Source: a bacterium
GTDB lineage: Bacteria; Cyanobacteriota; Vampirovibrionia; Gastranaerophilales; Gastranaerophilaceae
Reading direction: 5' to 3'
DNA length: 32,602 bases
NCBI GenBank assembly: GCA_017505585.1
Contig: JAFVOZ010000006.1
Coordinates: 1-32,602 of the forward strand
The notes under the pieces are model-generated. The model made no database searches. It was not told where the DNA came from and worked only from the letters and a program-made list of their open reading frames with translations. This document shows, piece by piece, positions 2 through 32,456 of this stretch; position 1 is the first letter of the stretch, and the number at the start of each line of letters is the position of its first letter. A program made the position numbers and the translations under genes.

Positions 2-3000
2 GCAGCAGGTGGTATTGCAGGTACTATCACGGGTAATATTACAAATGCTTATTCTAAAGGTGATATCCAAGGAACAGGTTCACTGGAAAGCACTACAGGC
101 GGTATTGCAGGTACAATCACAGGTAACATTTCAAATGCTTGTTCTGAAGGTGTAATAACTGGTTACCTCTACACCGGCGGTATTGCAGGCTTAGCAAATA
201 GCAACTCTTCTATCTCAAATACATATTCAACAGGTAGTGTGGATTCAGAACTCGATGCCGGCGGTATTGTAGGCAAACTAACAAACGGCACAATCACGGA
301 TTCATATTCATCAGGACATATAACAAGTGTTCGCAGATATGCAGGCGGTGTTGCAGGTATAATGACGGGCGACATAAGAAACGTATGCTCATCAGGAAAC
401 ATAACCGGTAGTCACGCAGGCGGTATTGTAGGTGAAATTGAAGGCAATATTGCAAACGCTCACTCAACAGGCATTATATCAAGTGCAAGTTATGCAGGCG
501 GTATTGCAGGCAAAATCACAGGTGATATTACAAATTCTTATTCAACAAACGGCGTAACAAGCCAAACCGGAGGCGCAGGCGGTATTGCCGCTTGGGCGAA
601 AGGTAATATAACAAATGCATATTCTCTTGGCAACATAAAAGGCAAAGGCTCAGCAACCGGCGGTATTGCAGGTGAAATTACGGGCAATATTTCAAATACT
701 TATTCCAAAGGTTCCGTTGAAGGCGAATACACCCAAGCAGGCGGTATTGCAGGTAAAATCACGGGCAATATTTCAAATGCATATTCTGAAGGCGCAATTA
801 CGGCATATACTAACGCAGGCGGTATTGCAGGCTATATTGAGGGCGATATCACAAACGCATATTCAACAGGTAATATATCAAGCTCCGTGCTTGATAATGG
901 TGGTTGGTCAGGTGGCATTGCAGGCGTAGCAAAAGGCAATATCACAAATGTGTACTCAACAGGTAACATATATACAAATGCAGGTTCCTATGCAGGCGGT
1001 ATTGTTGCTAAAATTACAGAAGGCACAATATCAAATGCATTCTCAACTGGATTCATCGGCGGATATTATTCAGGCGGCATTGCAGGTTTAACAGAAAACG
1101 CCGTAATCAAAAATGTTTATGCAACTGGTAATCTTGGTGGCAGCACAAATGGTGGCATTGTATGTGATGTTACTGGCACACTTGAACTTTCAAACTACGC
1201 ATTTAAACACCAAGAAGGTTTGAATTCAGATGGTATAGGCAGTGCAGCTGGCGCAACGGTTACAGGTGCAAACTTAATTGCATTTAAAGATGCTGAGTGG
1301 TTTGAAAACTCTGCAAATATTAAAGGTATATTGAACGCAGACATCACAGGTGCTTCGCCTTGGGGATTTGATGCTGTTCCTGGTACATCAATTGAACTCA
1401 ATAATTCAATGTATGTTCAAGGCGCAAGCGCAATGACGGAAGCAGAAGCAATCGAAGCTGGTTACACTGTTGTTAAAACCGCAAAAGAACTTCAGGTGGC
1501 ACTTGAGGCAAACCAAAATGTAATGCTCTTTGGCAATATTGATATGTCTGAATTTGCTTCTTGGTCAGGCATACAAACAACATACACAAGCACATTCGAC
1601 GGCAACGGATTCACAATTTCTAATTTGACAGGTACAAAAGGATTATTTACAAATATAGATGGTGCAAGCATTAAAAATGTAGATCTTGAAAATGTAAATA
1701 TACAAAGTGCTTACACTAAAGACCAAGATATATGCGTTGGTGCAGTTGCTTGTAATGCTTGGAATTCAACAATAGAAAATATAGGCATAACAGGCCATGT
1801 TGAAAGTACTGGATACGCAAGTGGTGTTATTGGTGACTTTTTAGGTGGCACAATTACTAATGTTAATTTCAAAGGAGAAATTGTTTCAACAAGTGCAGAC
1901 GCGAGTGGTATTGTTGGAAAAGTTTCGTCAGAATCTATTATTAAAGATATTCAATTTGAAGGCAAAGTATTAAGTGCACAAAATAGCAGCGGTATTGTTG
2001 GTTCTGCAAACAGCAAGGCAACTATCCAAAATACAATTGTAAACGCAACCATAAAAGCCGAAAACTCTGCTGGTGGTATTGTTGCGAATACTTCCAACGA
2101 TACAACAATTGAAGGTGCATACTTCAACGGTGATGTTGAAAACACTGGCTCAGGTGGAACTGGTGGCATTATTGGTGCTGCTGCATATAGTACAACGATT
2201 AGGGAAGCGCATGCGACAGGTTCGGTTAAAGGCGCTAACAATGTTGGTGGTTTTGCCGGCACAACAGCAAATAGTGGCTTGATAACAATTGAAAATTCTT
2301 CAGCTTGTATGAATGTTGAGGGTGTAAACTACGTTGGCGGTTTTGCTGGTTCCCTATGTTACGCCGCAGTATCTAATTCGTACTTTGAAGGAAATGTAAC
2401 AGGTACGAAATACGTTGGTGGTTTCGCAGGTGTGCTTGCTGGTAGTAGCGAAATTACAAATTCTTACACGAATTTAATGACTGGCGGGGTTGTTTCCGGT
2501 AATGCTAATGTTGGCGGATTTGTGGGAGAATTTGGTTACGATTCAAAAATCGATGGCGTTGTTTCAAAATCAACTGTTATTGCGACAGGTAGCGGAGCAA
2601 CAAACCTTGGCGGGTTTGCCGGTATTACAACCGACAATTATACTCTCACAAATTATGCATATCTCGAACAAACAAACGAAGGTGTTAGAAACTTTGACGG
2701 CATAGGCAGCTCTAATGATGAAGCAGTGGATTACTCTAAGGGTGTAAACTGGTTCAACAATGTTACCGAAATGGATGCAATTCTAAACGCAGGGCTTGAA
2801 GAAGGCGCAAAAGTATGGAACTTCTCTGGTGCTGAAACCGTTTCGGATTCTGAAGATGTGTTTGCAGGTGCAATTGGCGGAGCAGGTGTTAGCGGACTTT
2901 CAAAAGCTGAAGCAATAGCACAAGGTTTCACCGTTGTTGAAACAGCACGAGAATTGCAAGACGCAATCAATGCAAATAAGAAAATAATGCTGTTTGAAAA

Positions 3001-6000
3001 TATTGACCTAAGCTCAATTGCAAATTGGTCAGTAAGCGGAACATACGCTAACCAATTTGAAGGTAACGGCAAAACAATTTCAGGGCTCACAGGCGGAAGC
3101 TTGCTTGGCACAATCGGCACAGGCGCAAGCGTAAGTAACTTAATAATTACCAATGCAAATGTAACAACAGGCACAGGCGCGATTGCAGACAGCGCGGAAA
3201 ACGCATCTTTCAGAAATATTTCTGTTTCAGGCTCCGTGACAGGCGTTAACAACGTTGGTGGTTTGGTTGGATATGTTACAGGTTCTGATTTTGCAAAAAT
3301 TACAAGCGAAGTGAACGTTTCAGGTTCAAGCAATGTTGGCGGCATTGTTGGGCATTCAGAAAGTTCAGATTTCTCTGAAGTAAATGTTAGCGGAACAATT
3401 CAAGCAAGCACCGGCATCGCAGGCGGTGTTGCAGGTAACATGTCAGGCGACAGAGTTAAATTTGCAACAATTTCTGCAACAATTTCAGGCGCAGGCACAC
3501 TTGGCAGTGTTGCAGGTAGAGCGAATGACACTTCAATTGAAAATATCCATGTTACATCCAGCGCAAATATCACAGCAAGCGGCGGTTTGATTGGCGGAAT
3601 TGTTGGTACAACAAGCGGAACAATGAACTTCTCTGAAATCCTCATGGAAGGTACTATTTCGGGCGGTTCAGATTGCGTTGGCGGTATCGTTGGTGAAGCT
3701 ACAATATTAAATGCAAATAAAATCAAAATTACAGGAAGTATCACAAGCACAGGCAACAACATAGGCGGTATTGCAGGCTCGGCTCAAACCGTCAATATCA
3801 ACGATGTTGCGATTGAAGGTGCAATCACAGGTAAAGATTACACAGGTGGCATTGCAGGTAACATTTCAGAAAGCGGAACAATTTCAAATATCACCATAAC
3901 AGGCAAAGTTGCGGGTAAAGAACACACAGGCGGTGTTGCAGGCAGTGCAACAAAAGTTGATTTTGCAAATATTAAAGTTGTAAATAAAATCACGGGTGAA
4001 AATTACTCAGGCGGCATTGCAGGTTATATGCAAGACGGCAAAATTGAATTTGCCATTGTTAAAACAACAATTCTTGATGCAGATGACAATGCAAATTATG
4101 ATTGTTTTGGCGGTGCAGTCGGCAAATTTACAAGCACACTTAATGACGAAGGCGAAACAATTACTTTTGCAAAATCAGTTTCAATTAACGCTACCGTAAT
4201 CGGTAAAAATAATATCGGCGGCTTTGCAGGTTTAATTGAAAAACAAGGCACTGCAAACCTTAATATTGATACAATCCAAATTTCAAAAGGAAAAACTGTT
4301 TCAGGCGAAAATTATGTTGCAGCACTTGTTGGTGAAATTCAAGACACAAGCACGGGCAAATTAACCATTACAAACATTTCTTCAAATACTACCGTTACAG
4401 GAAAAGACTATACAGCAGGCATTATCGGCAAATACAAAAGCACTGCAGGCGGAACAATCGAAATACAAGATTCTTACTCAACAGGAAATATCACAGGTAA
4501 AGCCTACACTGCTGGCATTATCGGCTCTATGACAAACGGCACGATTACAAATACTTATTCAACAGGAAATATCAAAGGCGAAAATAATGTCGGTGGTATT
4601 GCAGGCTACGCGGATGGCATAAGTGAAATTCAAAATTCATATTCAACAGGAAATATCAAAGGTGTAGATAATGTTGGCGGTATTTTAGGTAATGCAACGG
4701 TTGCTGTTCAAGTAACAGGCGTAACAAACAGTATCACTCTCACTAATGTATCGTCTTCAGGCAAAATTGAAGGTAATGATTATGTTGCAGGCATTATTGG
4801 CGCAGCAAATTATCAAACAACTAATTTGACAAATGTATACTCATCATCTGAAATTTCAGGTGCAAACAAAGTTGGCGGTATTGCAGGATATATCGGTGGC
4901 AACATTACAAATGCGCTATATGAAGGCACAATAAAAGCAACTGGCGACATGGTTGGTGGTATTTTAGGCGGTGCTCTTGATGTCGGATATGGTCGTGTAA
5001 TCAATAATGTAACAGCAAGAGGAAATATTGAAACAACAGGCACAATGGCTGGTGGCATTGCAGGATATATTTCAGGATACACAATTGAAAACGCAATTTC
5101 CGGTGCAAATGTTAAAGGCGGAAGCTTTGTTGGCGGTTTTGTGGGTTACGCTGGAGAATTTGAAACCACTATAATCAAAAATTCTTATGTAACAGGCCTC
5201 GAAGGTGACACGGTTAAAGTTTCAGGCGGAGATAATGTCGGCGGTTTTGTGGGTCAAATGCAAAAAGGCGCAGTCGAAAATTCTGGTGCTGATGCTGAAG
5301 TAATAGGCAATAATTATGTCGGCGGTTTTGTGGGTTCAGCAATCTCTGCAACTCAAGAAGGCGCAAGCATTGCAAATTCTTATGCAACAGGCTCAGTAAC
5401 AGGTAATTCAAATGTCGGCGGTTTTGCAGGCTCTCTTGCAGGTGCAAAAGTTACAAACAGCTTTGCGGGCTACCTGAAAGAGAAAAATCAAACAGACTTT
5501 ACCGTGACAGGTAATTCAAATGTCGGCGGATTTGCAGGTTTTGCAACTTCAAGCAATATAACATATTCATTCTCTGAAGGAACAATTAAAGCAGGCGAAG
5601 ATATTGGCGCAACTTCAGCATTTGGCGGATTTATCGGCGCAATTGGTGCAAATTCAATAGCAGGTATTCCAACTTCAATTGCAAATGTATACTCAACAGC
5701 AAAACTTTCAGATAATATAACAACTGGCGCAAGAGGTGGATTTATTGGCGAAGTTCAAGCTAATGCAGTGCTTGAAGTTACAAATTATGCATTTGTTCAA
5801 CAAGCAGTGACAGGTGTTCAAGGAACTTATGGCATAGCACAAATTGCAAGCTCGGCAAGCGTTGCGGGCAAACTTCTTGCGGCTGAAAAAGATAAAGATT
5901 GGTTCAATAACAGCGCAAATGTAGGTTCAATACTAAACGCAGGCATAGAAGAAAGCAAAGACATTGTTTGGAATATGCATGTAACATCAAATGGTATGCT

Positions 6001-9000
6001 TTCAGAAAAACTCACAGAATGTGTGGGTGTAAATGCTGTCACAGAAAATGAAGCAATAGTTGCAGGCTTCACTGTTGTTAGAAATGCTCAAGAACTCCAA
6101 GAAGCACTGACAGGCGCAGATGGCTACAAACAAAATATTATGCTCTTTGGCGATATTGATTTATCTGATTTGAGTCAAATCGATCAAGTTTGGAACTCAA
6201 TTTCAAGCTACAGCGGTATATTCGACGGTAACGGATTCAAGATTTCAAATATTAATGAAGCATTATTTAATGAACTCACAACCCGCACCGAAACCGTAAC
6301 TGAAAACGGCATAGAAGTTACAAAGACATACAGCGCAGAAATCAGAAACTTAACTCTTGAAAACGTAAACATCTCTATTGATTCAGATAGCAATAATATC
6401 GGTGTAATTGCAAATTCTGCAACCGGAGCAATAATCAAAAACGTAACTCTCAATGACTCAATAATTACAATAACTAATTCATATGGCAACGTTAGCGATG
6501 TTGGCACTATTGTTGGTTCTGCAGAAAATACCACTTTTGAAGATATCAATATTTCAGGAGCAATAAACCATTATTCAGAATCCGGTTACTGTCTAAATGT
6601 TGGTTTTGTTGCTGGCTCTGCCAACAATTCAACATTTGCAAATATTGAATTAAGCGGAACAATCGACGCAAAACATGGCGAACATATAGGCTCCTTAGTA
6701 GGTCAAGCTTCAGGAATTACTGTCAATAACGTAAGTTCAAATGCGGAAATTATTGGTAATGCGCGCTTAGGCGGCATTATTGGTCAACTTGGAGAATCTT
6801 CAACAAACGAAACAAAACTTACAGCCGTTGCATTTAATGGCAATATCAGTTGCACAACATGTACATCTGGCGGTATTGTAGGTATAATCTCTTCAAGTGA
6901 AAATAGCAAAAATATACTCATTGAAAAATCATACTCCAATTGTACAATCAATGGAAATACAGAAACTGGTGGTATTGTTGGTAAAATAGAAAACACCGGC
7001 GGAACAATAACCATAAAAGAATGTTTTGCTCTTGGCAACATTATGGGTGATGGTTATATCGGCGGTATAGTCGGCTACATGAACAACACTGCAATAGATT
7101 CTTGCTGGTCAAGCGCAGATGTATCTCTGAGAAATGGATATGGCACAAATATAGGCGGACTTGTTGGTTATGCAGGAAATAGCACCATCACAAACTCTTG
7201 CAACATGGGCAATGTTTCCGGTAGCGAAAACATCGGTGGCTTGGTTGGTAAGGCTTCAAACACAACTATTTCTAATAGTAATGTAACTTACATTGAAAAA
7301 GAAAATGACACAAAAGGCTTAAGCATAACAGGCAACGCTTATGTTGGTGGATTTATTGGTTATGCAGAAAATAACACAATCATCACAAACAGTTTTGTAA
7401 AATATGAACCATTAGAAACAGACAGTAAGCATACATTGAATATATCAGGCACAAATTCCGTTGGCGGTTTTGCGGGCTATTTAAACAATTCTGCAATTTC
7501 TAATTCGTATTCTTCTGGCACCGTGAGTGGTACAGGCGGATATTATGGAGGTTTTGCAGGAATTGCAGTCGATTCAAGAATTGAAAACGTGTTCTCAACT
7601 ACTCAAGTTGAAACAAATGGCGCATATCGAGCTGGTGGATTTATTGGCGCAGTAACAAGTCCAAGCAAACTTGATAATTATCATTTCATAAGCCAAAAAA
7701 ATCCAGATGTACAAAGCACCCATGGTATAGGTTCTGGCGTTGAAAATATTACAGGCATTGAAGGCATTGGCGGCGCAGAAGCAAAAGCCGTAAAAGATGC
7801 AAACTGGTTCACGCAAACTGAAAACATTGCAAGTGTTCTAAAAGTGGGCGACACAGAAAACGTTTGGGATTTCAATGTTTCAGGCAACCCAGTTGGCGAA
7901 ATTGGAAATGCTGCATCAGAAATTGTCGGCATAAACGGTATCACTGAAGCAGAAGCAAAAGCGCAAGATTTCACCGTTGTTAAATCTGCACTTGAACTTC
8001 AAAATGCATTGAAAAACGGCGAAAATGTAATGCTGTTTGCTGATATTGATATGAATGACCTTGTTGGTGATTGGGAAACAATTAAATCATACACAGGCAC
8101 ACTCGATGGTAATGGATTTACAATTTCAAATGTTAATAAAGCATTATTTGATGAACTTACAACAAAAACTAAAACCGTTGTTGAAAACGGCGACGAAGTT
8201 GAAAAAACATACATAGGTACAGTTCAAAACTTAAACCTTGAAAATGTAAATCTCACAACATCAATCAATGTTGATACAGATGCAATTATAGATGCAAGCG
8301 CAATTGCAAACAGCGCAAACGGAGCAATATTTGATAACATCAACATTGAAGGTAACATTAACGGTGGTTCATACTCACAAATCGGCTTCATTGCAGGTAC
8401 TGCGGTTAATTCGACATTTAACGATATTGCAATTAATGGCTCAATTTCAGGTGAAGCTGAATTAGGTCTTGTTGCGGGTCAAACAACAGGAACTAACAAG
8501 TTCACAAACATCACGCTTGCAGGTAGTGTAACAGGTTCTTCTGTTTCTGTTGGTGGTGTCGCAGGTAATGCCGACACGTTCATTGCAGAAAATATAAAAT
8601 CAAGCGCAAATATCAGCGGTGATAACTTCGCAGGCGGTATTGTCGGATACGTCGAAGCAAATAGCACTATCAACAATTGCGAAATCACAGGAAACGTTGC
8701 AGGCTGCAACGATGTTGGCGGTATTGCGGGCAGCTTTACCGGCGAAATTAATAATTGTGCTGTAACCGGAAATGTGGCTGGCAACAACGATATTGGTGGC
8801 ATTGTTGGCATGCTGTATGGAACAATTTCAAATTCATACACCACTGGAAATGTTACAGGTGTTAATTCTGTGGGTGGTATTGCGGGCAATACCAACGGTG
8901 GCAATATTAATGATTGCTTTGCTACAGGTACTATTGAAGGCTACACATTCACCGGTGGTATAACTGGTAGTCTTTCTGGCAATCTTTCAAATAGCTATTT

Positions 9001-10640
9001 TGCAGGAACTATTAACACAGGCTCTGGCATAGAATATGTTGGCGGATTAGTTGGTGTACACTTGAGTGGAACTATTACAAATTGTGTATTCCGCGAACAA
9101 GCTAATAACAAGAACTTAAATCTTGCACAAAATGCTAATGGTATAGGTTTTGGTACAAACACTGATATTTCAACAGATCGTACATACGAATCTGCAAACT
9201 TCGTAAAATCTGCTGATTGGTTCACAAACAAAGATAATCTTGAATCCATTATTGGCGAAAATTGGAACTTCAACACAATTCAAAATGCTGATGTCGCAAG
9301 TAAATATTCTGAACTTGTTGGTGTAAATTTAATTACAGAAGCTGAAGCTATTGCTCAGGGTTATACTGTTGTTAAAACTGCAAACGAACTTCAAAAGGCA
9401 CTTGAAAACGGCGATAATGCAATGCTGTTTGCAGATATTGACATAAATGACCTTGCTGACGGTTGGGCAACAATTGCATCCTACACAGGCACATTTGACG
9501 GTAACGGTTTTACAATTTCTAACTTAACTGGCTCACAAGGTTTATTTGAAACACTCACTGGCACGGTTCAAAACTTGAAACTAGAAAATGTAAATATAAA
9601 ACTTGTTGTTCAAGAAGGAATAACAGAATACGACACTGGCGCAGTTGCAGGAAAAGTTAGCGGTGGCAAAGTTTCAAATGTAACCGTTACAGGCACAATA
9701 GACGGCACTGGCGCAAGCGGATACACCGGCGCTATTACAGGTAGACTATCAAGTGGCGAAATCACAAACTGCGCATACCAATTTGGAGTCGAACTCATAG
9801 ATAGTGAAGCCGACAAAACAAAACCTGAAAGCTGGAAAGCAACAGGTAGCATTAAAGGCGAATACACTGGCGGTATCGTAGGCGCAATTGGCGGCGGCAC
9901 AATTAGCGGTTGCAAAATTGAAGCTGGCATCCAAAGCTTTAAAACCACAGACGATAATGGCAACATTATCGAAAATAGTGTTGAATATATCGGCAAAATC
10001 TCTGGCACAACGGTTGGTGGTATCGCGGGTTATGCCATAGACGGTAAAATTGTAGGCTCCAGTGTTAATGCTAATATTAACATCGATGAACACTCAAGCG
10101 GCACAGCAGGCGGCGTTGTTGGCTATATTAATGATATGAGTGTTAACGGAATAACAATTGTTGGTTGCACTTCTTCAGGAAGCGTAAGTGGCACTTGCGC
10201 AGGTGGCGTTGTTGTTATGGCTACTGGCGAAAGAAAAACAACAATATCAGACTGCTTCTCAACAGCCACAGTAACTGGTGACCACGCTGGTGGTTTTGCC
10301 GGAGTTGTAAACGGAACGCTTATTGAAAATTCATACGCAGCAGGCAACGTTACTGGCACAATAAATGCCGGCGGCTTTATAGGTAAACTTACAAACTGTT
10401 CAACAGTAAAAAATTCTTACTGTGCGGGAAATGTATATAACAATAATTCAGAAGGCGCATACGGTGGCTTTATAGGTTATATTGAAACAGCAGCAATGGA
10501 ATTCGCTGCGGTTAATATTCATAATGTTGTTTCAAGAAGCCAAGTGAAAGCAACTGCTGGTGCTTGCGGTGCATTTATCGGAAACATCGCGGAAGGCTCT
10601 TATGTTTCATTGAATACAGAAGCAAGATATGCCGCAGGAA
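2..10640 (+). repeat. GLUG-type tandem repeat array within the giant gene
   Basis: Dozens of repeats of roughly 22-45 codons follow one another, each with a glycine pair followed by I/V/F and a second glycine, then a turn, then N-x-YSTG or a variant. Variants change along the gene: GGIAG dominates the start, NVGGFAG and VGGFVG the middle, and GGIVG/GGIAG later parts. Some repeats are close at base level, for example ggtaattcaaatgtcggcgg occurs at both 5403 and 5511. Recent duplication or gene conversion is inferred from that. The repeats are coding, imperfect and without unique spacers, so they are not a CRISPR array. Confidence 0.85.
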
Positions 10641-11671
10641 AAGCTGGCAATTATGCATACGCCCTTCAAGAAAATACCGATCTCAATGATGGTATCGGCA
10701 TCGGCATCAAAACAGGTGTAGACGGCACAACCGTACACTTTATGAATACTAAAAACAATGCGGTACTATCATATACGGTTGCTCAAAAAGACGCAAGTTG
10801 GTTCCAAGAAACAAAAGGATTAAATACAATCCTTAACGGCACAGGAACAGTTGATGCGGAAGGCAATGAAATAACCCTTGAAGGCGACGATGCACACTGG
10901 AAATTTGGTTATGAAGTTTACACGGAAGTAACTGAAACAAACGAAAATGGCATCAAAGAAACCAAAAAGGTATACAAAACTTTAGCTCTTGAAAACCCTG
11001 TTCTTACAGGCAATGTTACAGGTAATGCAAGCTTAACCGCAGCTGAAGTGGTGGCTGTTTATGACAACTTGAATATGGGCAGCAAGAAATCTCACAGCAC
11101 AATATTTGAAGGACAAGTACTGCCTGATGGCGAAGCCGACAACACAGTTAGAATAGATACAAGCTTTGATTTAAAAATTAAAGTTGACGTAGACGGCGAC
11201 GGCGACTATGACGGTAAATTCGGTGAAGATATAACCATTGACATATTATCAAGTAACGATATAGCAAAAATTAAGGAAGAAAATCTTGCTATATTGAACA
11301 GCTTGAAAAAAGCAATTGATACAAAACAACAATACATCGATGATGAAAAAGCAAAACTACTCGACAAAGAAAAAAGATTGGAAAAACTCTTAACCGGCGG
11401 CGCGTCCAGCTCAAGCTCAAGCACCGGCGCAATGAAGAAAACTCACTCAACTTCAAATATCAATAAGCAAGAGTTTAACAATGCCGTATCAGACCTTGTT
11501 CAAGCTTTAATGGAAGTTATTCAAGGCTCATTGCTTTCCGGTAAAAACAGCAACTCTGATTTCTACAATATAATGAACTTAATGGGCTTCCCAACAAACT
11601 TATTATCAGGCTCGAGCACAGGCTTAAGCGGCTCTTCTTGGAGCGGCGGCAGCGGGCTGTCTTCTAAATAA
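2..11671 (+). CDS. Giant GLUG-repeat surface/secreted protein, 5' end missing
   Basis: The frame is open from base 2 to the TAA at 11669-11671, so at least 3,889 residues are visible and the true start is upstream of the window. The protein is almost wholly short repeats of the form GGIAG-x-G-x-I-x-N-x-YSTGNI, the GLUG motif known from bacterial adhesins and IgA-peptidase-like surface proteins; such repeats are expected to form a long beta-solenoid. Larger modules are superimposed (see repeat entries). The C-terminal part differs: one Ca-binding-like DVDGDGDYDG (11186-11215), a charged predicted coiled coil (about 11261-11395), a serine run (about 11402-11432) and a Gly/Ser tail ending in SSK. 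I see no LPxTG signal, no final TM helix and no autotransporter barrel, so the export route must be encoded in the missing N-terminus or be unusual. An adhesive or envelope role is inferred; repeat-family assignment is firm, function is not. Confidence 0.9.
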   Translation, partial: AAGGIAGTITGNITNAYSKGDIQGTGSLESTTGGIAGTITGNISNACSEGVITGYLYTGGIAGLANSNSSISNTYSTGSVDSELDAGGIVGKLTNGTITDSYSSGHITSVRRYAGGVAGIMTGDIRNVCSSGNITGSHAGGIVGEIEGNIANAHSTGIISSASYAGGIAGKITGDITNSYSTNGVTSQTGGAGGIAAWAKGNITNAYSLGNIKGKGSATGGIAGEITGNISNTYSKGSVEGEYTQAGGIAGKITGNISNAYSEGAITAYTNAGGIAGYIEGDITNAYSTGNISSSVLDNGGWSGGIAGVAKGNITNVYSTGNIYTNAGSYAGGIVAKITEGTISNAFSTGFIGGYYSGGIAGLTENAVIKNVYATGNLGGSTNGGIVCDVTGTLELSNYAFKHQEGLNSDGIGSAAGATVTGANLIAFKDAEWFENSANIKGILNADITGASPWGFDAVPGTSIELNNSMYVQGASAMTEAEAIEAGYTVVKTAKELQVALEANQNVMLFGNIDMSEFASWSGIQTTYTSTFDGNGFTISNLTGTKGLFTNIDGASIKNVDLENVNIQSAYTKDQDICVGAVACNAWNSTIENIGITGHVESTGYASGVIGDFLGGTITNVNFKGEIVSTSADASGIVGKVSSESIIKDIQFEGKVLSAQNSSGIVGSANSKATIQNTIVNATIKAENSAGGIVANTSNDTTIEGAYFNGDVENTGSGGTGGIIGAAAYSTTIREAHATGSVKGANNVGGFAGTTANSGLITIENSSACMNVEGVNYVGGFAGSLCYAAVSNSYFEGNVTGTKYVGGFAGVLAGSSEITNSYTNLMTGGVVSGNANVGGFVGEFGYDSKIDGVVSKSTVIATGSGATNLGGFAGITTDNYTLTNYAYLEQTNEGVRNFDGIGSSNDEAVDYSKGVNWFNNVTEMDAILNAGLEEGAKVWNFSGAETVSDSEDVFAGAIGGAGVSGLSKAEAIAQGFTVVETARELQDAINANKKIMLFENIDLSSIANWSVSGTYANQFEGNGKTISGLTGGSLLGTIGTGASVSNLIITNANVTTGTGAIADSAENASFRNISVSGSVTGVNNVGGLVGYVTGSDFAKITSEVNVSGSSNVGGIVGHSESSDFSEVNVSGTIQASTGIAGGVAGNMSGDRVKFATISATISGAGTLGSVAGRANDTSIENIHVTSSANITASGGLIGGIVGTTSGTMNFSEILMEGTISGGSDCVGGIVGEATILNANKIKITGSITSTGNNIGGIAGSAQTVNINDVAIEGAITGKDYTGGIAGNISESGTISNITITGKVAGKEHTGGVAGSATKVDFANIKVVNKITGENYSGGIAGYMQDGKIEFAIVKTTILDADDNANYDCFGGAVGKFTSTLNDEGETITFAKSVSINATVIGKNNIGGFAGLIEKQGTANLNIDTIQISKGKTVSGENYVAALVGEIQDTSTGKLTITNISSNTTVTGKDYTAGIIGKYKSTAGGTIEIQDSYSTGNITGKAYTAGIIGSMTNGTITNTYSTGNIKGENNVGGIAGYADGISEIQNSYSTGNIKGVDNVGGILGNATVAVQVTGVTNSITLTNVSSSGKIEGNDYVAGIIGAANYQTTNLTNVYSSSEISGANKVGGIAGYIGGNITNALYEGTIKATGDMVGGILGGALDVGYGRVINNVTARGNIETTGTMAGGIAGYISGYTIENAISGANVKGGSFVGGFVGYAGEFETTIIKNSYVTGLEGDTVKVSGGDNVGGFVGQMQKGAVENSGADAEVIGNNYVGGFVGSAISATQEGASIANSYATGSVTGNSNVGGFAGSLAGAKVTNSFAGYLKEKNQTDFTVTGNSNVGGFAGFATSSNITYSFSEGTIKAGEDIGATSAFGGFIGAIGANSIAGIPTSIANVYSTAKLSDNITTGARGGFIGEVQANAVLEVTNYAFVQQAVTGVQGTYGIAQIASSASVAGKLLAAEKDKDWFNNSANVGSILNAGIEESKDIVWNMHVTSNGMLSEKLTECVGVNAVTENEAIVAGFTVVRNAQELQEALTGADGYKQNIMLFGDIDLSDLSQIDQVWNSISSYSGIFDGNGFKISNINEALFNELTTRTETVTENGIEVTKTYSAEIRNLTLENVNISIDSDSNNIGVIANSATGAIIKNVTLNDSIITITNSYGNVSDVGTIVGSAENTTFEDINISGAINHYSESGYCLNVGFVAGSANNSTFANIELSGTIDAKHGEHIGSLVGQASGITVNNVSSNAEIIGNARLGGIIGQLGESSTNETKLTAVAFNGNISCTTCTSGGIVGIISSSENSKNILIEKSYSNCTINGNTETGGIVGKIENTGGTITIKECFALGNIMGDGYIGGIVGYMNNTAIDSCWSSADVSLRNGYGTNIGGLVGYAGNSTITNSCNMGNVSGSENIGGLVGKASNTTISNSNVTYIEKENDTKGLSITGNAYVGGFIGYAENNTIITNSFVKYEPLETDSKHTLNISGTNSVGGFAGYLNNSAISNSYSSGTVSGTGGYYGGFAGIAVDSRIENVFSTTQVETNGAYRAGGFIGAVTSPSKLDNYHFISQKNPDVQSTHGIGSGVENITGIEGIGGAEAKAVKDANWFTQTENIASVLKVGDTENVWDFNVSGNPVGEIGNAASEIVGINGITEAEAKAQDFTVVKSALELQNALKNGENVMLFADIDMNDLVGDWETIKSYTGTLDGNGFTISNVNKALFDELTTKTKTVVENGDEVEKTYIGTVQNLNLENVNLTTSINVDTDAIIDASAIANSANGAIFDNINIEGNINGGSYSQIGFIAGTAVNSTFNDIAINGSISGEAELGLVAGQTTGTNKFTNITLAGSVTGSSVSVGGVAGNADTFIAENIKSSANISGDNFAGGIVGYVEANSTINNCEITGNVAGCNDVGGIAGSFTGEINNCAVTGNVAGNNDIGGIVGMLYGTISNSYTTGNVTGVNSVGGIAGNTNGGNINDCFATGTIEGYTFTGGITGSLSGNLSNSYFAGTINTGSGIEYVGGLVGVHLSGTITNCVFREQANNKNLNLAQNANGIGFGTNTDISTDRTYESANFVKSADWFTNKDNLESIIGENWNFNTIQNADVASKYSELVGVNLITEAEAIAQGYTVVKTANELQKALENGDNAMLFADIDINDLADGWATIASYTGTFDGNGFTISNLTGSQGLFETLTGTVQNLKLENVNIKLVVQEGITEYDTGAVAGKVSGGKVSNVTVTGTIDGTGASGYTGAITGRLSSGEITNCAYQFGVELIDSEADKTKPESWKATGSIKGEYTGGIVGAIGGGTISGCKIEAGIQSFKTTDDNGNIIENSVEYIGKISGTTVGGIAGYAIDGKIVGSSVNANINIDEHSSGTAGGVVGYINDMSVNGITIVGCTSSGSVSGTCAGGVVVMATGERKTTISDCFSTATVTGDHAGGFAGVVNGTLIENSYAAGNVTGTINAGGFIGKLTNCSTVKNSYCAGNVYNNNSEGAYGGFIGYIETAAMEFAAVNIHNVVSRSQVKATAGACGAFIGNIAEGSYVSLNTEARYAAGKAGNYAYALQENTDLNDGIGIGIKTGVDGTTVHFMNTKNNAVLSYTVAQKDASWFQETKGLNTILNGTGTVDAEGNEITLEGDDAHWKFGYEVYTEVTETNENGIKETKKVYKTLALENPVLTGNVTGNASLTAAEVVAVYDNLNMGSKKSHSTIFEGQVLPDGEADNTVRIDTSFDLKIKVDVDGDGDYDGKFGEDITIDILSSNDIAKIKEENLAILNSLKKAIDTKQQYIDDEKAKLLDKEKRLEKLLTGGASSSSSSTGAMKKTHSTSNINKQEFNNAVSDLVQALMEVIQGSLLSGKNSNSDFYNIMNLMGFPTNLLSGSSTGLSGSSWSGGSGLSSK
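1190..10910 (+). repeat. Higher-order modules (linker plus header) in the giant gene
   Basis: A longer unit recurs on top of the short repeats. A header reads A-E-A-x-A-x-G-F-T-V-V-K-x-A-x-E-L-Q, then MLF-x-DID, then a TFDGNGFTISNL-like stretch, then LENVNI. It begins near 1433, 2897, 6038, 7940 and 9332. Before each header sits a linker with NYAF-x-x-Q, DGIGS, a Trp-Phe pair and ILNAG...WNF; the WF pair lies near 1296, 2748, 5898, 7801, 9215 and, without a following header, near 10797. Header-to-header spacing is about 1.46, 3.14, 1.90 and 1.39 kb, because the number of short repeats inside each module varies. The sixth linker closes the array before the unique C-terminus. Confidence 0.8.
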
Positions 11672-15256: not shown

Positions 15257-16114
15257 ATGAATATAAGCCCGACCAAAAGTTTTAGGTTTACAAAAACCGG
15301 CAGGAAATTAAACCAAGCCTCAAAAGCAACTCGAAAGATGTTCAATTTCAAGGGATTGTCCTGTATGGAAATAGAGCAAAAATTGCTAAAAGAAGACAAG
15401 ATAATTGCAAATTTTAAAAACAATCAACTGGTTGCGGATGCTGTAAACACAACGGTGAATATTTTCAAAAAAATTTTAGGAGGAAATTATTTGCCAAGCG
15501 AAGTGCATTTTACAAGCTTCAAAGATACTCATCCAAAACACACAAATGCATTAGGAATTTTTTGTCCCGACAAAAAATCAATCGGAATCAATGCTGATTT
15601 CAAGTGTTTCGACAATTTTAAGAATTTAAAACGTGCCAAGCTAGGTGACTTCAATTTCTTACTATGGGACAATGAAAAATCAACCTTGCACCCGCTTCAC
15701 ACTTTTATACATGAGTTTGCACATTGCGCTCATTATAAAAATTTACTTAAAAACGGCAATACTGATTGCTGGAATTGGCTTGGCGAAAAAAATACAAAAG
15801 GCTTGAACTATACATCACAAAGTGGCACTTATGGCAAATATTCAACAAGTGATCTCAAGGAGTATTTTGCAGAAGTAATGACAAAAGAGATATTAGAAAA
15901 CGTCCCTTCTGAATATCCAAGCAAAAGTATTGATACAAGCAGAATTGATTTAAGAGCAATCAAGCCTGAAGATTATATACACGCTGGCGAAATAAATACT
16001 TACCATATATGGACAGGCAATAAAGCGGAGATTGAAAAAAATTTAGGAGAAATGGTAGAATTAAACAGTCAGCTTACTGATGTCAACAGAATTATACGCA
16101 GTTTCATCATATAG
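15257..16114 (+). CDS. Putative zinc metalloprotease-like protein (HExxH)
   Basis: The 285-residue protein carries HEFAH at residues 152-156 and a downstream EYFAE at 202-206. Together these give the ligand pattern of gluzincin metalloproteases (two His of HExxH plus a later Glu, with the first Glu catalytic). A stretch SGTYGKYS just before EYFAE resembles the S-x-Y...E-x-F-A-E arrangement of HEFGH-type domains seen in phage and toxin-like proteins. There is no signal peptide or TM helix; the N-terminus is basic (KSFRFTKTGRKLNQ). I cannot name a family or substrate. A small TM protein follows after nine bases, so the two are probably co-transcribed. The ATG has no strong Shine-Dalgarno. Confidence 0.6.
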   Translation: MNISPTKSFRFTKTGRKLNQASKATRKMFNFKGLSCMEIEQKLLKEDKIIANFKNNQLVADAVNTTVNIFKKILGGNYLPSEVHFTSFKDTHPKHTNALGIFCPDKKSIGINADFKCFDNFKNLKRAKLGDFNFLLWDNEKSTLHPLHTFIHEFAHCAHYKNLLKNGNTDCWNWLGEKNTKGLNYTSQSGTYGKYSTSDLKEYFAEVMTKEILENVPSEYPSKSIDTSRIDLRAIKPEDYIHAGEINTYHIWTGNKAEIEKNLGEMVELNSQLTDVNRIIRSFII

Positions 16115-26776: not shown

Positions 26777-27427
26777 CTACAAAGATTTGTCTTCAATAAT
26801 ACTTGTTATACGAAGTCCGAATTTGTCTTCTATAACTATAACTTCGCCGTGCGCAACAAGCTTTCCGCAAACAAAAAGTTCAACTTGCTCACCCGCAACT
26901 TTATTAATTTCAATAATTGAGCCTTTTTGAATGTCTAAAACTTTTTTAACCTTCATTTTGCATCTGCCAAGCTCAACCGTGATTTTTGCTTTAACATCTT
27001 GCATAATATCAAGGTTTTTCCTTGGCGTGCCAACTGCACTCACTTCATTTTCAAAACTTGCAAAGCGAATGGGTTTCACGGTTATAACTTCGTCATCAAA
27101 CTCTTCTTTAGGCTCAGCTTTTGGAGGCATAGGAGGAATTGAAGAAGCTTTGCTCTGAGATGTTTGCGCTTTAGCTTGAGGTGCTTGTGGCATATTTGGC
27201 ACTCTTTGCTGTTGCGGAGCTTGAGGCTGCTGTGGCATTCCTTGCGTTTGAGGAGTCGGAGGCACTTGTGGTTGCCCAGAACTAAGCCCCTGATTCTGAA
27301 TGTTCGGAATATTTGGAGTTTGGGGGTTTTTGCTTCCAGGCATAGCGGAAAACATACTATCAGGACCCATATTTAATGCGCCAAAATCTTGATTTTCATT
27401 ATTATTATCGTTTCCAAATCCGGACAT
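26777..27427 (-). CDS. fliN: Flagellar motor switch protein FliN with low-complexity N-terminus
   Basis: The 216-residue protein ends in a SpoA (surface presentation) domain, about residues 141-212: VKAKITVELGRCKMKVKKVL, KGSIIEINKVAGEQVELFVCGKLVAHGEVIVI, FGLRITSI. This is the C-ring domain that sets motor direction and docks export proteins. The first 110 or so residues are Gln/Pro/Met/Asn-rich and predicted disordered, longer than the short lead of most FliN; there is no CheC phosphatase domain as in FliY. The ATG has AAGGTGG four bases upstream and lies eight bases after the fliL stop, within the motA-motB-fliL-fliN run. Confidence 0.88.
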   Translation of the reverse strand: MSGFGNDNNNENQDFGALNMGPDSMFSAMPGSKNPQTPNIPNIQNQGLSSGQPQVPPTPQTQGMPQQPQAPQQQRVPNMPQAPQAKAQTSQSKASSIPPMPPKAEPKEEFDDEVITVKPIRFASFENEVSAVGTPRKNLDIMQDVKAKITVELGRCKMKVKKVLDIQKGSIIEINKVAGEQVELFVCGKLVAHGEVIVIEDKFGLRITSIIEDKSL

Positions 27428-27435
27428 TTGCCACC

Positions 27436-28098
27436 TTATTGAATTATGAATTGAGCAAAGTTAACTCTTAAAACTTCTCTTGAACCGTTAAACACGGCAC
27501 TTACCATATCTTGTATTTCTTCTTTTGCGATTTCTTTACCTGTAGGAGTTGAAAGCTCGTCTGCTGTTTTACTTGATAAAACAGAAATCACAGCATCTCT
27601 GATTGCAGGTTTATACTGTTCCATCTCGGCAATAACTGCCGCCATAGGATCAACCGGAGCAGGTGCACCATGTCCGCCATGTCCGCCGCCACCATGTGCT
27701 GCTGCATTTGCTGCTGCGTTTGCTGCTTCAACTTCTGCAATAGTTTTTGTGAGTTCAATCGCAACATTTACTTTCAAATATCTTCTTACCGCGGGGTCAG
27801 CCAAATTCAAAATAAAATCGCCCAAATCAAGCAAAATGCCTTTTTCCTCTTGGGTTACTTCCGTGCCTTCTTCAGCAATTAATTCTTCTGAAGGGTGAAC
27901 TTTTGCAATTTCTGATTTAACCGTTGATTTAACAATCGAGCTGCCAACAAAAGTCATTATCACAAAAAATACTATTAAAACCAATGTATTAACCATAAGC
28001 AGCATATTTGTGCTAATTTGTTTATCATTTTTATTTACAACCGCTTGTGGTGCTTCGTCTTTCGGTTTTACATCTTTTCCTGAAGTAGGTTTAGCCAT
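27436..28098 (-). CDS. fliL: Flagellar basal-body protein FliL, with Gly/His-rich insertion
   Basis: The 220-residue protein has a cytoplasmic N-tail, one TM helix (about 32-52) and a periplasmic domain with GILLDLGDFILNLADPAVRRYLKVNVAIEL (about 87-116) and RVNFAQFIIQ at the end, the FliL pattern. FliL surrounds MotA/MotB stators and aids their activity. Normal FliL is about 150-180 residues; here an Ala/Gly/His/Pro-rich stretch (126-148, including HGGGGHGGHG) is inserted after the first beta strands. I chose the ATG at 28098 because GGAG lies seven bases upstream; a TTG four codons earlier overlaps that ribosome site. It follows motB by 18 bases. Confidence 0.85.
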   Translation of the reverse strand: MAKPTSGKDVKPKDEAPQAVVNKNDKQISTNMLLMVNTLVLIVFFVIMTFVGSSIVKSTVKSEIAKVHPSEELIAEEGTEVTQEEKGILLDLGDFILNLADPAVRRYLKVNVAIELTKTIAEVEAANAAANAAAHGGGGHGGHGAPAPVDPMAAVIAEMEQYKPAIRDAVISVLSSKTADELSTPTGKEIAKEEIQDMVSAVFNGSREVLRVNFAQFIIQ

Positions 28099-28116
28099 TA
28101 TAAACTCCAATTTTAA

Positions 28117-28830
28117 TTAATTTAATATTATTATATCAACTCTTCTGTTTTTTGCCCTACCCTGAGAAGTTGAATTTGTTGCTATCGGCTTGATATCTGC
28201 ATAACCTGCAACGGTGAATCTTTTTTTATCAAGCTTTTTGTTAACTATCAAATAATCAGCTATTTTTGAGGCTCTGACAGATGACAATTCCCAATTTGTG
28301 CCATATTTTGCATTTTTAATCGGAAGATTATCGCTATGTCCTTCTATTCTAATGTGTTTTTGGTTTTTAGTCAAAACCTTTGCAATTTCATCCAAGGTTT
28401 GCTTTGATTTGGGTTTAATCTCAGCAGAAGCAGAGTCAAATAATAAACCTTCGCCCATTCGAACGGTGAGAGAACCTGCTTCTTTTATGATTTGGATGTT
28501 TTCATCCTTGGTTGTTTCTTTTAATTGTTTTGCAATATTGTCAAATTCGATTACCCTTATTTCTTCCGCGTCCGAAGGATTTTTAACCCCTTGCAAAAGC
28601 AAATTCACCCCAGGCTCTTCTTTATTCATTGAAATATTTTTATTTTCCTTTTGCGGTGCTGCTTCAATTGGCTTTTCGCTAAATTTTGATCGGAGTTCTT
28701 TATTTTCAGTTGTCGCACCAATATATAACATCATAAAAAGAGCAAGCAAAATTGTTGTAAAATCCGAATACGAAACAATCCACCTGTTCCGCCTTTGATT
28801 TTGATATTTTTTAAAAGAAAGAAAACCCAC
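28117..28830 (-). CDS. motB: Flagellar stator protein MotB
   Basis: The 237-residue protein begins with a basic tail and one TM helix containing WIVSYSDFTTILLALFMMLY; Asp23 is the ion-carrying aspartate of MotB. A linker follows, then an OmpA-like peptidoglycan-binding domain from about residue 120 with IEGHSDNLPI, WELSSVRASKIADYL and GRAKNRRVDI. With MotA it forms the ion channel that drives flagellar rotation. The start is a GTG two bases after the motA stop with AGGGA upstream, so the pair is tightly coupled. Ion type (H+ or Na+) cannot be decided. Confidence 0.93.
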   Translation of the reverse strand: MGFLSFKKYQNQRRNRWIVSYSDFTTILLALFMMLYIGATTENKELRSKFSEKPIEAAPQKENKNISMNKEEPGVNLLLQGVKNPSDAEEIRVIEFDNIAKQLKETTKDENIQIIKEAGSLTVRMGEGLLFDSASAEIKPKSKQTLDEIAKVLTKNQKHIRIEGHSDNLPIKNAKYGTNWELSSVRASKIADYLIVNKKLDKKRFTVAGYADIKPIATNSTSQGRAKNRRVDIIILN

Positions 28831-28832
28831 AA

Positions 28833-29648
28833 CTATCCCTTTCTGAAAAGTTTTTTGAAAATAGAATTTTGTTGTTTTGTGTTTTCAAAATCGTCTTTAA
28901 AATCTTCTAAGCCTTCTTTAACAACAATTGTGCTTTGGTTCTCGCAAATTCTGACAACTGTTTTGATTACAACTTTTTGATAATTCATCTTGTCTTTCAA
29001 AACATTTTTGTAGTTACCTGAAATCGGGAGAAAAACAAGGTTCGCAAGAGCTAAACCCCACAAAGTTGCACAAAATGCAGTTGCAATCCCAGGCATTAAT
29101 TGGTTAATACTTTGTGCGGAAGACGCTATTTGCATTAGCCCGGCAATTGCTCCGATAATACCAAAAGTTGGGGCATAGCCACCCATTTCTTCAAATATTT
29201 CAATATTTGTGTTGTCTTCTTTGTTTACAAAATCCATGTAATTTAAAAGATTTTGTTCAAGTTGCTCAGGGTCATTTATATCAATGCAACTTTTAAGGCA
29301 TTTGCGTAAAAAATGGTTTTCAATTTTAGGAACAATTTTTTCCAAGCCCAAAATGCCGTTCTTTTTAACAAAAACAGAAATTTCAGATAAAAGTTCTATA
29401 TCCTCATAAGAATTAATTTCTTCCGATAAAATAAGCTTTTTGGTACTTCTTATTGCATTAAACACCTTTGGAATTGAAAAATTCAGGGAGCACGCGCAAA
29501 GCGTTCCTCCTAAAACTATCAAAAGCGCATTCGGTTCAAAAATATCAACAAGACCTTTTGATTTAAGAACAAAAGAAATTGAAATCAAAGAAAACCCAGC
29601 AACAATTGCCACAATATTTCCTAAGTTTAAATATCTTTTTTTGCGCAT
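28833..29648 (-). CDS. motA: Flagellar stator protein MotA
   Basis: The 271-residue protein has four predicted TM helices (about 11-29, 38-56, 155-175, 186-207) and the MotA/PomA signature EMGGYAPTFGIIGAIAGLM before TM3. The cytoplasmic loop between TM2 and TM3 carries the charged residues that contact FliG in the family. It makes the stator ring with MotB. Length fits the PomA-like group (about 250-270). The ATG is three bases after the stop of the MerR-like gene, so they are one transcript. Confidence 0.93.
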   Translation of the reverse strand: MRKKRYLNLGNIVAIVAGFSLISISFVLKSKGLVDIFEPNALLIVLGGTLCACSLNFSIPKVFNAIRSTKKLILSEEINSYEDIELLSEISVFVKKNGILGLEKIVPKIENHFLRKCLKSCIDINDPEQLEQNLLNYMDFVNKEDNTNIEIFEEMGGYAPTFGIIGAIAGLMQIASSAQSINQLMPGIATAFCATLWGLALANLVFLPISGNYKNVLKDKMNYQKVVIKTVVRICENQSTIVVKEGLEDFKDDFENTKQQNSIFKKLFRKG

Positions 29649-31477: not shown

Positions 31478-32401
31478 TTAAGCATCCCAAATTTTGGACA
31501 TTATCTGTGCGTATTTCGAAGTTGAAAGACCCATACCATATGCAGCAAGACTTGAAACATAATTTGCCATCATGCCAGTTGAGCTTTTAATCATTTTCAT
31601 TGCAGCGCTATAGTCGCCCGTGCCAGAAAAAGAAATAGCGTCTTTGACAGAATTTGAAGCTGCTTCATAATTTTGTGTCAATATGTTTTTATTTGTTTCT
31701 AAATCGGAATTGTATTTGTCTATGTTTTTAACCAAAGTTTCAACTATACCGTGCGCAGAGTTTAAATCTTCAGCGCCGTCAACCGTTACATTAAAACCTG
31801 ATATTGAAAGGGTTGTATCAAACTCAAGCACTGAACCTTCAGTTCCTTCAAAACCTATTTGCGCCCTTGCAGTATCTATATATTTTTCATTTACCTCTTC
31901 GTCGAGCACGTAAGTTCCGTCTTCTTCTCTTTTAAATTTTTGAATACTTGAAGGCTTATAGTCATGCTCTCCGAAAACATTTGCACCGTCGTATGTTGTG
32001 CCGTTTTTTAATTCATACAATTCACCAAGCAATTCATTGATATTTGCTTGCGCCGCATCAAATTCAGCAGAGGTGGAAGATTCAGTCAAAGTGTTTAATT
32101 CGTTTTTTATCTCTTGAGCAATTGATTTCATGCCGTCTAATGAATTTTGCGCAACTGATATGAGAGCAATGCCATTTTGCGTGCTTTTTTGAATTTCAAA
32201 ATAATCACCTAATCTGTAATCAAAATCAATTGAGGATGCGTAAGTGTCTTTGTCAGAGCTTATCTCACTTCCGTTAGAATGTGCAAAGCCGGAATATTGT
32301 TCAGCTTTAGCCTGCCTCTCATAAACAGAGGTAAGGGTATTTGTTCTATACAATCCTATCGCGCTAACCATATCATCCTTCTGAATACTTAGTTTACTCA
32401 T
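31478..32401 (-). CDS. Divergent flagellin-like protein
   Basis: The 307-residue protein resembles the flagellin/FlgL helical rod: residues about 66-145 contain FEIQKSTQNGIALISVAQNSLDGMKSIAQEI, ANINELLGELYELKNGTTYDGANVFGE, close to the family pattern of an N-terminal rod (NAQDGISLxQTAEGAL ... T-x-F-N-G). The C-terminal third is again helical (ETLVKNIDKYNSDLETNKNIL onward). It lacks the usual flagellin start (MRINTN...) and the DADxAxE ending, and it contains no Cys. Filament or hook-junction protein is the best guess, helped by motility genes downstream; another coiled secreted protein is possible. The ATG at 32401 has AGGGA too close to it; an ATG at 32371 has AGAAGG at ideal spacing and may be the true start. 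Confidence 0.5.
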   Translation of the reverse strand: MSKLSIQKDDMVSAIGLYRTNTLTSVYERQAKAEQYSGFAHSNGSEISSDKDTYASSIDFDYRLGDYFEIQKSTQNGIALISVAQNSLDGMKSIAQEIKNELNTLTESSTSAEFDAAQANINELLGELYELKNGTTYDGANVFGEHDYKPSSIQKFKREEDGTYVLDEEVNEKYIDTARAQIGFEGTEGSVLEFDTTLSISGFNVTVDGAEDLNSAHGIVETLVKNIDKYNSDLETNKNILTQNYEAASNSVKDAISFSGTGDYSAAMKMIKSSTGMMANYVSSLAAYGMGLSTSKYAQIMSKIWDA

Positions 32402-32439: not shown

Positions 32440-32456
32440 TGTAACAATTTGTTACA
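32440..32456. promoter_or_regulatory. 17-bp palindrome upstream of the flagellin-like gene
   Basis: tgtaacaa-t-ttgttaca is a perfect 8-1-8 palindrome 38 bases before the ATG at 32401. Its first 13 bases recur at 32588-32600, at the window edge. This is a candidate operator for a dimeric regulator of the flagellin-like gene. The 201-base region 32402-32602 holds no gene that I can see. Confidence 0.5.

What the first reader, a model, noticed from the sequence alone, without database searches (positions are those of the whole stretch)
2..11671. Giant repeat protein with nested modular architecture
The visible part alone is 3,889 residues. Short GLUG repeats are packed into larger modules, each with a header (AEAxAxGFTVVKxAxELQ ... 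DGNGFTISNL) and preceded by a linker (NYAF ... DGIGS ... WF ... ILNAG ... WNF). Five headers and six linkers are seen, with 1.4 to 3.1 kb between headers. GLUG repeats are known, but this two-level design with a regular Trp-Phe linker suggests a rod of several beta-solenoid blocks joined by defined joints.
Basis: partly seen in the sequence, partly recalled or inferred. Interest (0 to 1): 0.55.

Follow-up and report, generated by a model that had tools for sequence, protein, structure and literature searches.

The report
Giant beta-helix protein, flagellin-like start
The window holds the back part of a very large bacterial protein built from repeated beta-helix blocks; the same blocks are carried by the flagellar filament and flagellar tip proteins of its relatives, so it is probably a huge flagellum-linked surface arm, not just another repeat adhesin.

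Summary
In detail: a 5'-open frame at 2-11671 (3,889 aa), five headers, six linkers, 1.4-3.1 kb between headers; held-out headers are recovered at E 1.7e-24 or better. Each header is the helical N-cap and first rungs, and each linker the flexible tail, of a GLUG beta-helix block like that of M26 IgA1 proteases: a known domain type. The new part is the carrier. The 5' end probably lies on another contig of the same genome (G000:C9); synteny with a same-genus genome supports one gene of at least 5,387 aa. Its N-terminus resembles the D1 half of flagellin (E 4e-6 and 7e-10 with a local flagellin profile) without D0; its C-terminus shows no detectable flagellin or FliD homology. The same header-GLUG block sits in the variable region of two flagellins of this genome and in giant FliD (filament cap) proteins of relatives, up to 11,061 aa with 12 headers. 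Best reading: GLUG blocks are interchangeable surface passengers of flagellar axial proteins, and the window protein is a D0-less flagellin-like giant, probably exported by the flagellar system and used as an adhesive or spacer arm. Export, location and function are inferred. The source looks like gut Gastranaerophilales (inference).

The parts
2..11671 (+). 3' part of the giant GLUG protein gene, 5'-open at the contig edge, 3,889 aa visible
1427..1732 (+). header 1 (beta-helix N-cap), residues 476-577
   Evidence: profile match
2891..3184 (+). header 2, residues 964-1061
6032..6352 (+). header 3, residues 2011-2117
7934..8233 (+). header 4, residues 2645-2744; modelled as helix-strand-helix cap then rungs
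9326..9631 (+). header 5, residues 3109-3210
1193..1411 (+). linker 1 (NYAF..GIGS..WF), approximate ends
2651..2866 (+). linker 2, approximate ends
5783..6016 (+). linker 3, approximate ends
7676..7921 (+). linker 4, approximate ends
9089..9316 (+). linker 5, approximate ends; modelled at low confidence with short helices
10649..10981 (+). linker 6, approximate ends
10982..11668 (+). C-terminal tail without GLUG: acidic stretch, coiled-coil-like stretch, Ser/Gly-rich end; conserved in genome G001 (last 199 aa 64% identical); no detectable flagellin or FliD homology
31478..32401 (-). flagellin-like protein lacking the D0 half at its N-terminus; matches the giant's N-terminal domain (P0003)
26777..29648 (-). 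flagellar genes fliN, fliL, motB, motA (context)

Best explanation
The window holds the 3' part of one giant surface protein of at least 5,387 residues. It begins with a flagellin-type D1 segment (without D0), carries at least nine GLUG right-handed beta-helix blocks, each opened by a header-type N-cap and, in the window part, closed by a flexible WF tail ('linker'), and ends in a conserved non-GLUG tail. The blocks sit where flagellins carry their surface-exposed variable domain. Most likely the protein is a flagellin-derived accessory protein, exported without a signal peptide by the flagellar type III system and held at the flagellum, with the string of blocks reaching outward as an adhesive or spacer arm. 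Shown: block anatomy, predicted fold type, the same block in flagellins and FliDs, D1-like N-terminus. Inferred: that the N and C parts are one gene, the export route, the location, adhesion.
For: Block. One gene: in both genomes the N part runs off a contig end and the C part off a contig start, and the segment with both parts is inverted as a unit between the two genomes. Flagellin-type N-terminus: Flagellin_N matches the G001 giant at E 5.5e-5 (profile 54-136; under the curated cut-off) and the G000 giant at E 0.013; a local profile of 130 rows gives E 7.1e-10 and 4.1e-6, against a best shuffle of 0.17 and 0.031 in two runs. Same block in two flagellins of the same genome and in flagellins of relatives. 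Same block in giant FliD proteins. No hydrophobic signal-like stretch in the first 60 aa and no LPxTG in the last 200 aa; a pilin-like control scores 3.03. No secretion partner among the neighbouring genes.
Against: The C-terminus gave no flagellin match in four profile tests and neither end matches FliD profiles. hmmscan of the N-terminal 252 aa alone gave no flagellin hit at E 1. D0, which flagellin needs to polymerise, was not detected. No sigma-28-like site upstream. The gene is not inside a flagellar operon. N and C parts are on separate contigs with no overlap. Only 2 of 383 family genomes carry this protein's own ends strongly.
Confidence: 0.5

Rival explanations
1. An ordinary large GLUG adhesin of the cell surface, exported by some other route, whose N-terminal helices only resemble flagellin.
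For: C-terminus not flagellin-like; D0 absent; no flagellar promoter. In the same order, other GLUG giants are pilin-like (6,347 and 4,702 aa), so the block is not tied to flagella.
Against: No signal peptide-like stretch, anchor or secretion partner seen; N-terminal match to flagellin is well above shuffles in both species; the first block starts shortly after the D1 segment as in flagellins.
Confidence: 0.3
2. A diverged giant FliD (filament cap), like the 6-11 kaa GLUG FliDs of relatives.
For: Same block and similar size as true giant FliDs; some of those are so diverged that FliD_N is barely or not found.
Against: Neither end of the window protein matches profiles of classical or diverged giant FliDs better than shuffles; the FliD_C search of the genome does not return it even at E 10; G001 has a normal 589-aa FliD elsewhere.
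Confidence: 0.08
3. The N part (C9) and the C part (C54) are two separate giant genes, or the contigs are chimeric.
For: No overlap between the contig ends; genome 72.9% complete in 99 contigs.
Against: Same split, same flanks and same inverted unit in a second genome, where both parts are conserved: 60% over 1,275 aa and 54% over 558 aa.
Confidence: 0.12

Closest known systems
GLUG / M26 IgA1 protease beta-helix domain (Pfam PF07581, tail of PF05342)
   Same: Block fold and header: VIA-align Z 27.8, rmsd 2.8, 263 aligned to 7uvk over model 10..459; PDB 3n6z E 4.4e-17 with a weak separate stretch over the header.
   Different: No M26 protease domain found in the visible part; the block is repeated at least nine times in one chain.
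Giant flagellins (Thomson et al. 2018, PMC6248924; abstract and passages seen)
   Same: Flagellin-type N-terminal region with a very large repeated passenger in place of D2/D3; in G000, G001 and relatives true flagellins with frames of 555-2,085 aa carry large inserts.
   Different: The window protein lacks detectable D0 and a flagellin C-terminus, is at least 5,387 aa, and the passenger is a GLUG beta-helix.
Flagellinolysin and other flagellins with a domain in the hypervariable region (Eckhard et al. 2017, PMC5595980; abstract and passages seen; 61 domain families reported)
   Same: A foreign surface domain inserted between the conserved flagellin halves.
   Different: Passenger is a repeated beta-helix, not a metallopeptidase; 'GLUG' does not occur in that paper's main text; whether it is among the 61 families I could not see.
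FliD filament cap (HAP2; review PMC8306008, passages seen: extra head domains D4/D5 in H. pylori FliD, mucin adhesion by P. aeruginosa FliD)
   Same: Relatives carry the same header-GLUG blocks inside FliD, up to 11,061 aa.
   Different: The window protein's own ends are not FliD-like.

Membership tests
GLUG beta-helix (PF07581) | GLUG motifs above the Pfam cut-off | tested here: met
   145.8 bits against 20.5; 11 stretches
GLUG beta-helix (PF07581) | right-handed beta-helix fold | tested here: met
   AlphaFold model only, mean pLDDT 82.6; Z 27.8 to 7uvk
Flagellin | N-terminal D1 helical region | tested here: met
   E 5.5e-5 and 0.013 with PF00669 (both under its curated cut-off), 7.1e-10 and 4.1e-6 with a local profile
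Flagellin | N-terminal D0 helix | tested here: not met
   Matches start at profile position 49-55; none in the first 140 residues
Flagellin | C-terminal D1/D0 region | tested here: not met
   No match above shuffles; hhalign probability 2.3; a resemblance by eye remains
FliD | FliD_N and FliD_C domains | tested here: not met
M26 IgA1 protease | metallopeptidase domain | tested here: inconclusive
   Only the M26_N tail overlapping header and GLUG rungs matched; part of the gene is missing
Flagellar type III substrate | export through the flagellum | not testable with these tools
   only the absence of a signal peptide-like stretch was seen

The most novel reading that the evidence does not exclude
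In this bacterial order one beta-helix block is swapped among three flagellar axial carriers: the filament (flagellin), the tip (FliD, up to 11,061 aa) and a third, D0-less flagellin-like giant seen in the window. The bacteria would then build flagella with very large outward arms on shaft and tip, exporting single chains of 5,000-11,000 residues through the flagellar channel.
Probability: 0.4. Interest if true: 0.8.

Novelty: new variant of a known kind. Interest (0 to 1): 0.6.

Why it matters
Giant flagellins and domain insertions in flagellins are known, and FliD is a known mucin adhesin, but GLUG beta-helix passengers in flagellins and multi-thousand-residue FliD caps were not found in the papers searched (open-licence papers only). 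If these are exported intact, they test the size limit of flagellar type III export and suggest that gut members of this order use flagella as adhesive or sensing arms. The header-to-tail block gives a defined unit to express and assay.

Tried and rejected
Flagellin homology of the C-terminal tail: looked plausible by eye (ID-TSF, then a helix) but failed, so it is not claimed. FliD membership of the window protein: rejected. Sigma-28 promoter upstream of the giant: none. A TGTAACAAANTGTAAAA motif upstream of the diverged flagellins is degenerate (3 mismatches) before the G001 giant and its genome-wide count at 3 mismatches is not above the backward control, so it is not used. Overlap between the C9 and C54 contig ends: none. 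Defence systems (PADLOC): none. NCBIfam hits to ZmpC/ZmpD are 17.9-26.2 bits against a cut-off of 3000 and cover only the header/rung region. The flagellin C44 model is of low confidence outside the beta-helix (mean pLDDT 67.3, the D0 ends mostly under 50) and is not used as proof of D0/D1. The G035 frame found did not pass my frame filter and was not looked at further.

Full report
1. What is there. The frame at 2-11671 is open to the contig edge and ends in a stop; 3,889 residues are visible. The window is the whole of contig C54 of genome G000 (1.22 Mb, 99 contigs, 72.9% complete). Leave-one-out profiles recover every header (E 1.7e-24 to 1.6e-36) and every linker (E 2.7e-14 to 2.3e-5); 50 shuffles of the protein gave nothing better than 0.047 and 0.84. 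Pfam finds Glug at 6.3e-44.

2. What the headers and linkers are. A model of module 4 with header 5 (591 aa, nine rows in the alignment, mean pLDDT 82.6, pTM 0.72) shows header = helix 10-15, strand 19-21, helix 24-32, followed by a beta-helix to about residue 395; the linker, about 396-471, is mostly at pLDDT 33-64 with short helices at 432-445 and 457-464; the next header is again around 90. The best solved neighbours are M26 IgA1 proteases (7uvk Z 27.8, rmsd 2.8, 263 aligned, model 10..459; 3n6z Z 25.2, rmsd 3.4, 273 aligned). By sequence the same alignment finds 3n6z at 4.4e-17, with a separate weak stretch over the header (i-Evalue 0.082), and 6xjb at 1.8e-15 from the header's strand onward. 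So header and linker are the cap and tail of a known domain type, and the joint looks flexible.

3. The 5' end. GLUG matches in G000 lie on C54, C9, C44 and C87. C9 carries a 1,498-aa frame with a start codon, running off the contig end; it starts without a hydrophobic stretch and has four header-like starts, two of them with the N-cap part. The same-genus genome G001 has the N part at the end of C6 and the C part at the start of C5. Gene order shows that the segment holding the N part, the C part and the 5-formyltetrahydrofolate cyclo-ligase gene is inverted as a unit between the two genomes. This is best explained by one gene of at least 5,387 aa (1,498 + 3,889) with a gap; it is not proven, and the contig ends do not overlap. 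The count of at least nine blocks is four headers on C9 plus five in the window. In G001 the contig breaks in a tandem copy of a block: spacing 861 bases, exact run of 95 bases, and 83-100% identity in 60-base windows from offset 2380. Blocks are therefore being duplicated, and block number probably varies between strains; that was not measured.

4. The carrier. The own-genome search showed that C44 (786 aa, complete) and C87 (628 aa, cut) are flagellins with one header-GLUG-linker block between the conserved halves: Flagellin_N 4.9e-29 and 5.3e-30, Flagellin_C 3.7e-8 for C44. In 59 relatives searched with the window protein's C-terminal 491 aa, 13 had a match, mostly to GLUG rungs. Of the GLUG frames I fetched from these, those in G025 (two), G041, G006, G031, G034 and G049 have flagellin ends; G046 has a flagellin split in two overlapping frames. 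Of nine GLUG flagellin frames tested with the window's header profile, seven carry a header including its N-cap part and two do not (one has a partial match, one none).

5. The window protein's own ends. The N part of the giant matches Flagellin_N only over the D1 portion (G001 E 5.5e-5, profile 54-136; G000 E 0.013; both under the curated cut-off). A profile of 130 flagellin rows from this order gives 7.1e-10 and 4.1e-6, with the best of 500 shuffles at 0.17 and of 1,400 at 0.031. The D0 part is not seen. The window's own diverged flagellin (31478-32401) has a similar limit (matches begin at profile 60 with Pfam, 31 with the local profile). hmmscan of the N-terminal 252 aa alone gave no flagellin hit at E 1. 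The C-terminal tail gave no flagellin match in four tests. FliD profiles, classical and diverged, do not match either end. In 383 family genomes the N-terminal domain was found in 6 and the C-terminal domain in 4, but strongly only in G000 and G001; this carrier is narrow.

6. Giant FliD proteins in relatives. GLUG is present in 36 of 286 genomes of the order. I fetched 13 places around long frames plus one short one and listed their frames. With Pfam on the ends: G063:C1, 6,603-aa frame, FliD_N 9e-16 and FliD_C 2e-35; G139:C4, 6,018 aa, 3.8e-16 and 9.3e-33; G256:C4, 2,425 aa, 1e-15 and 1.6e-36 with four GLUG stretches; G087:C2, 6,214 aa, FliD_C 1.4e-13; G087:C5, 11,061 aa, FliD_C 1.1e-7; G134:C1, 8,905 aa, FliD_C 1e-5; G176:C9, 6,511 aa, FliD_N 3e-4 (under cut-off) and the Flagellin_IN motif 2.5e-9. 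G319:C68 (4,930 aa, 5'-open) has FliD_C at 5.5e-39. The last 1,000 aa of the G260:C26 frame gave Flagellin_IN and no FliD_C. G319:C67, G082:C34, G249 and G270 were not given to Pfam. The short G228:C7 frame ends like a flagellin (by eye). The window's header profile finds 12 headers in the 11,061-aa protein, 9 in the 8,905-aa one, 9 in G176, 7 in G087:C2, and 0 to 7 with N-cap in the other nine long frames. In G249, G260 and G270 a normal-sized FliD frame (about 490 aa) lies next to the giant on the same strand. FliD_C over all 286 genomes: 139 with a match at E 0.01, 115 over the cut-off; by my reading of the listed rows (the list is cut) about 36 frames in 31 genomes are 1,000 aa or longer. 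Not all of these carry GLUG: of seven further giant FliDs fetched, two have several GGxxG rungs (10 and 8), one five, and four none or one. The giant cap is thus a wider habit than the GLUG block. Pilin-like GLUG giants also exist (G048:C1 6,347 aa, G045:C34 4,702 aa), so the block is not restricted to flagella.

7. How it most likely works. Established knowledge: flagellins and FliD are exported by the flagellar type III system, and their middle region is displayed on the filament or tip (PMC6248924, PMC8306008, passages seen). Shown here: the same block occupies that middle region in flagellins and FliDs of this order, and in the window protein's N part it follows a D1-like segment. Inferred: the window protein is exported the same way and displays a string of beta-helix blocks; flexible linkers let the string bend; the blocks bind a glycan or protein, or hold a binding site away from the cell. 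How a D0-less protein is anchored is unknown; co-assembly with the other D0-less flagellin-like protein of the window is a guess.

8. Known or new. GLUG domains, giant flagellins and flagellins with foreign domains are known. In the library, 'flagellin' with 'GLUG' gave 0 papers, 'GLUG motif' 2 (archaeal genome papers by title), 'flagellin, hypervariable, beta-helix' 1 phage review, 'FliD' with 'giant' nothing relevant by title in the 10 listed of 32, and two stricter FliD searches nothing on giant caps. Melainabacteria are known to be flagellated (PMC3787301, PMC7018530, passages seen). I rate it a new variant of a known kind; the giant FliD caps are the more surprising part.

Noticed in passing
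G087:C5 (L229/L230), G134:C1 (L231/L232), G063:C1 (L233/L234) and others: Giant FliD filament-cap proteins of 2,425 to 11,061 aa; about 36 FliD frames of 1,000 aa or more in 31 genomes among the listed rows, alongside normal FliDs of about 480-620 aa. Some carry GLUG blocks, others different repeats.
   Followed up: partly
G048:C1 (L051/L052), G045:C34 (L053), G045:C21 (L054): Very long GLUG proteins (6,347, 4,702 and 2,402 aa) that start like type IV pilins or pseudopilins.
   Followed up: no
G001:C1 (L160 6899-11830), G001:C11 (L161 1-5058): Flagellins of 1,644 and 1,686 aa with a mostly non-GLUG insert rich in GADT/GNDN-type repeats, in the same genus as the window.
   Followed up: no
G046:C1, L057 5659-8511 and 8495-12046: A GLUG flagellin split into two overlapping frames, the first with the flagellin N end and the second with the C end, while the same-genus G041 has one frame of 1,557 aa; a frameshift, real or sequencing error.
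   Followed up: no
window 32440-32456 (-), G000:C67:1722, G000:C79:2470, G001:C6:277, G001:C17:33496: Motif TGTAACAAANTGTAAAA, exact or near-exact, before the diverged flagellins in both genomes; genome-wide counts at 3 mismatches are not above control.
   Followed up: partly
G001:C6 (L082), offsets 2374 and 3235 of the giant gene: Recent tandem copy of one beta-helix block, 861 bases apart, with a 95-base exact run at which the contig ends.
   Followed up: partly
window 15257-16114 (+): 285-aa frame without a Pfam family match, between uvrD and a dprA-like gene; not matched in the G001 contigs compared.
   Followed up: no
G049:C157, L064 4046-5701 (-): A 552-aa GLUG protein with helical-looking ends that Pfam does not recognise as flagellin or FliD.
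   Followed up: no
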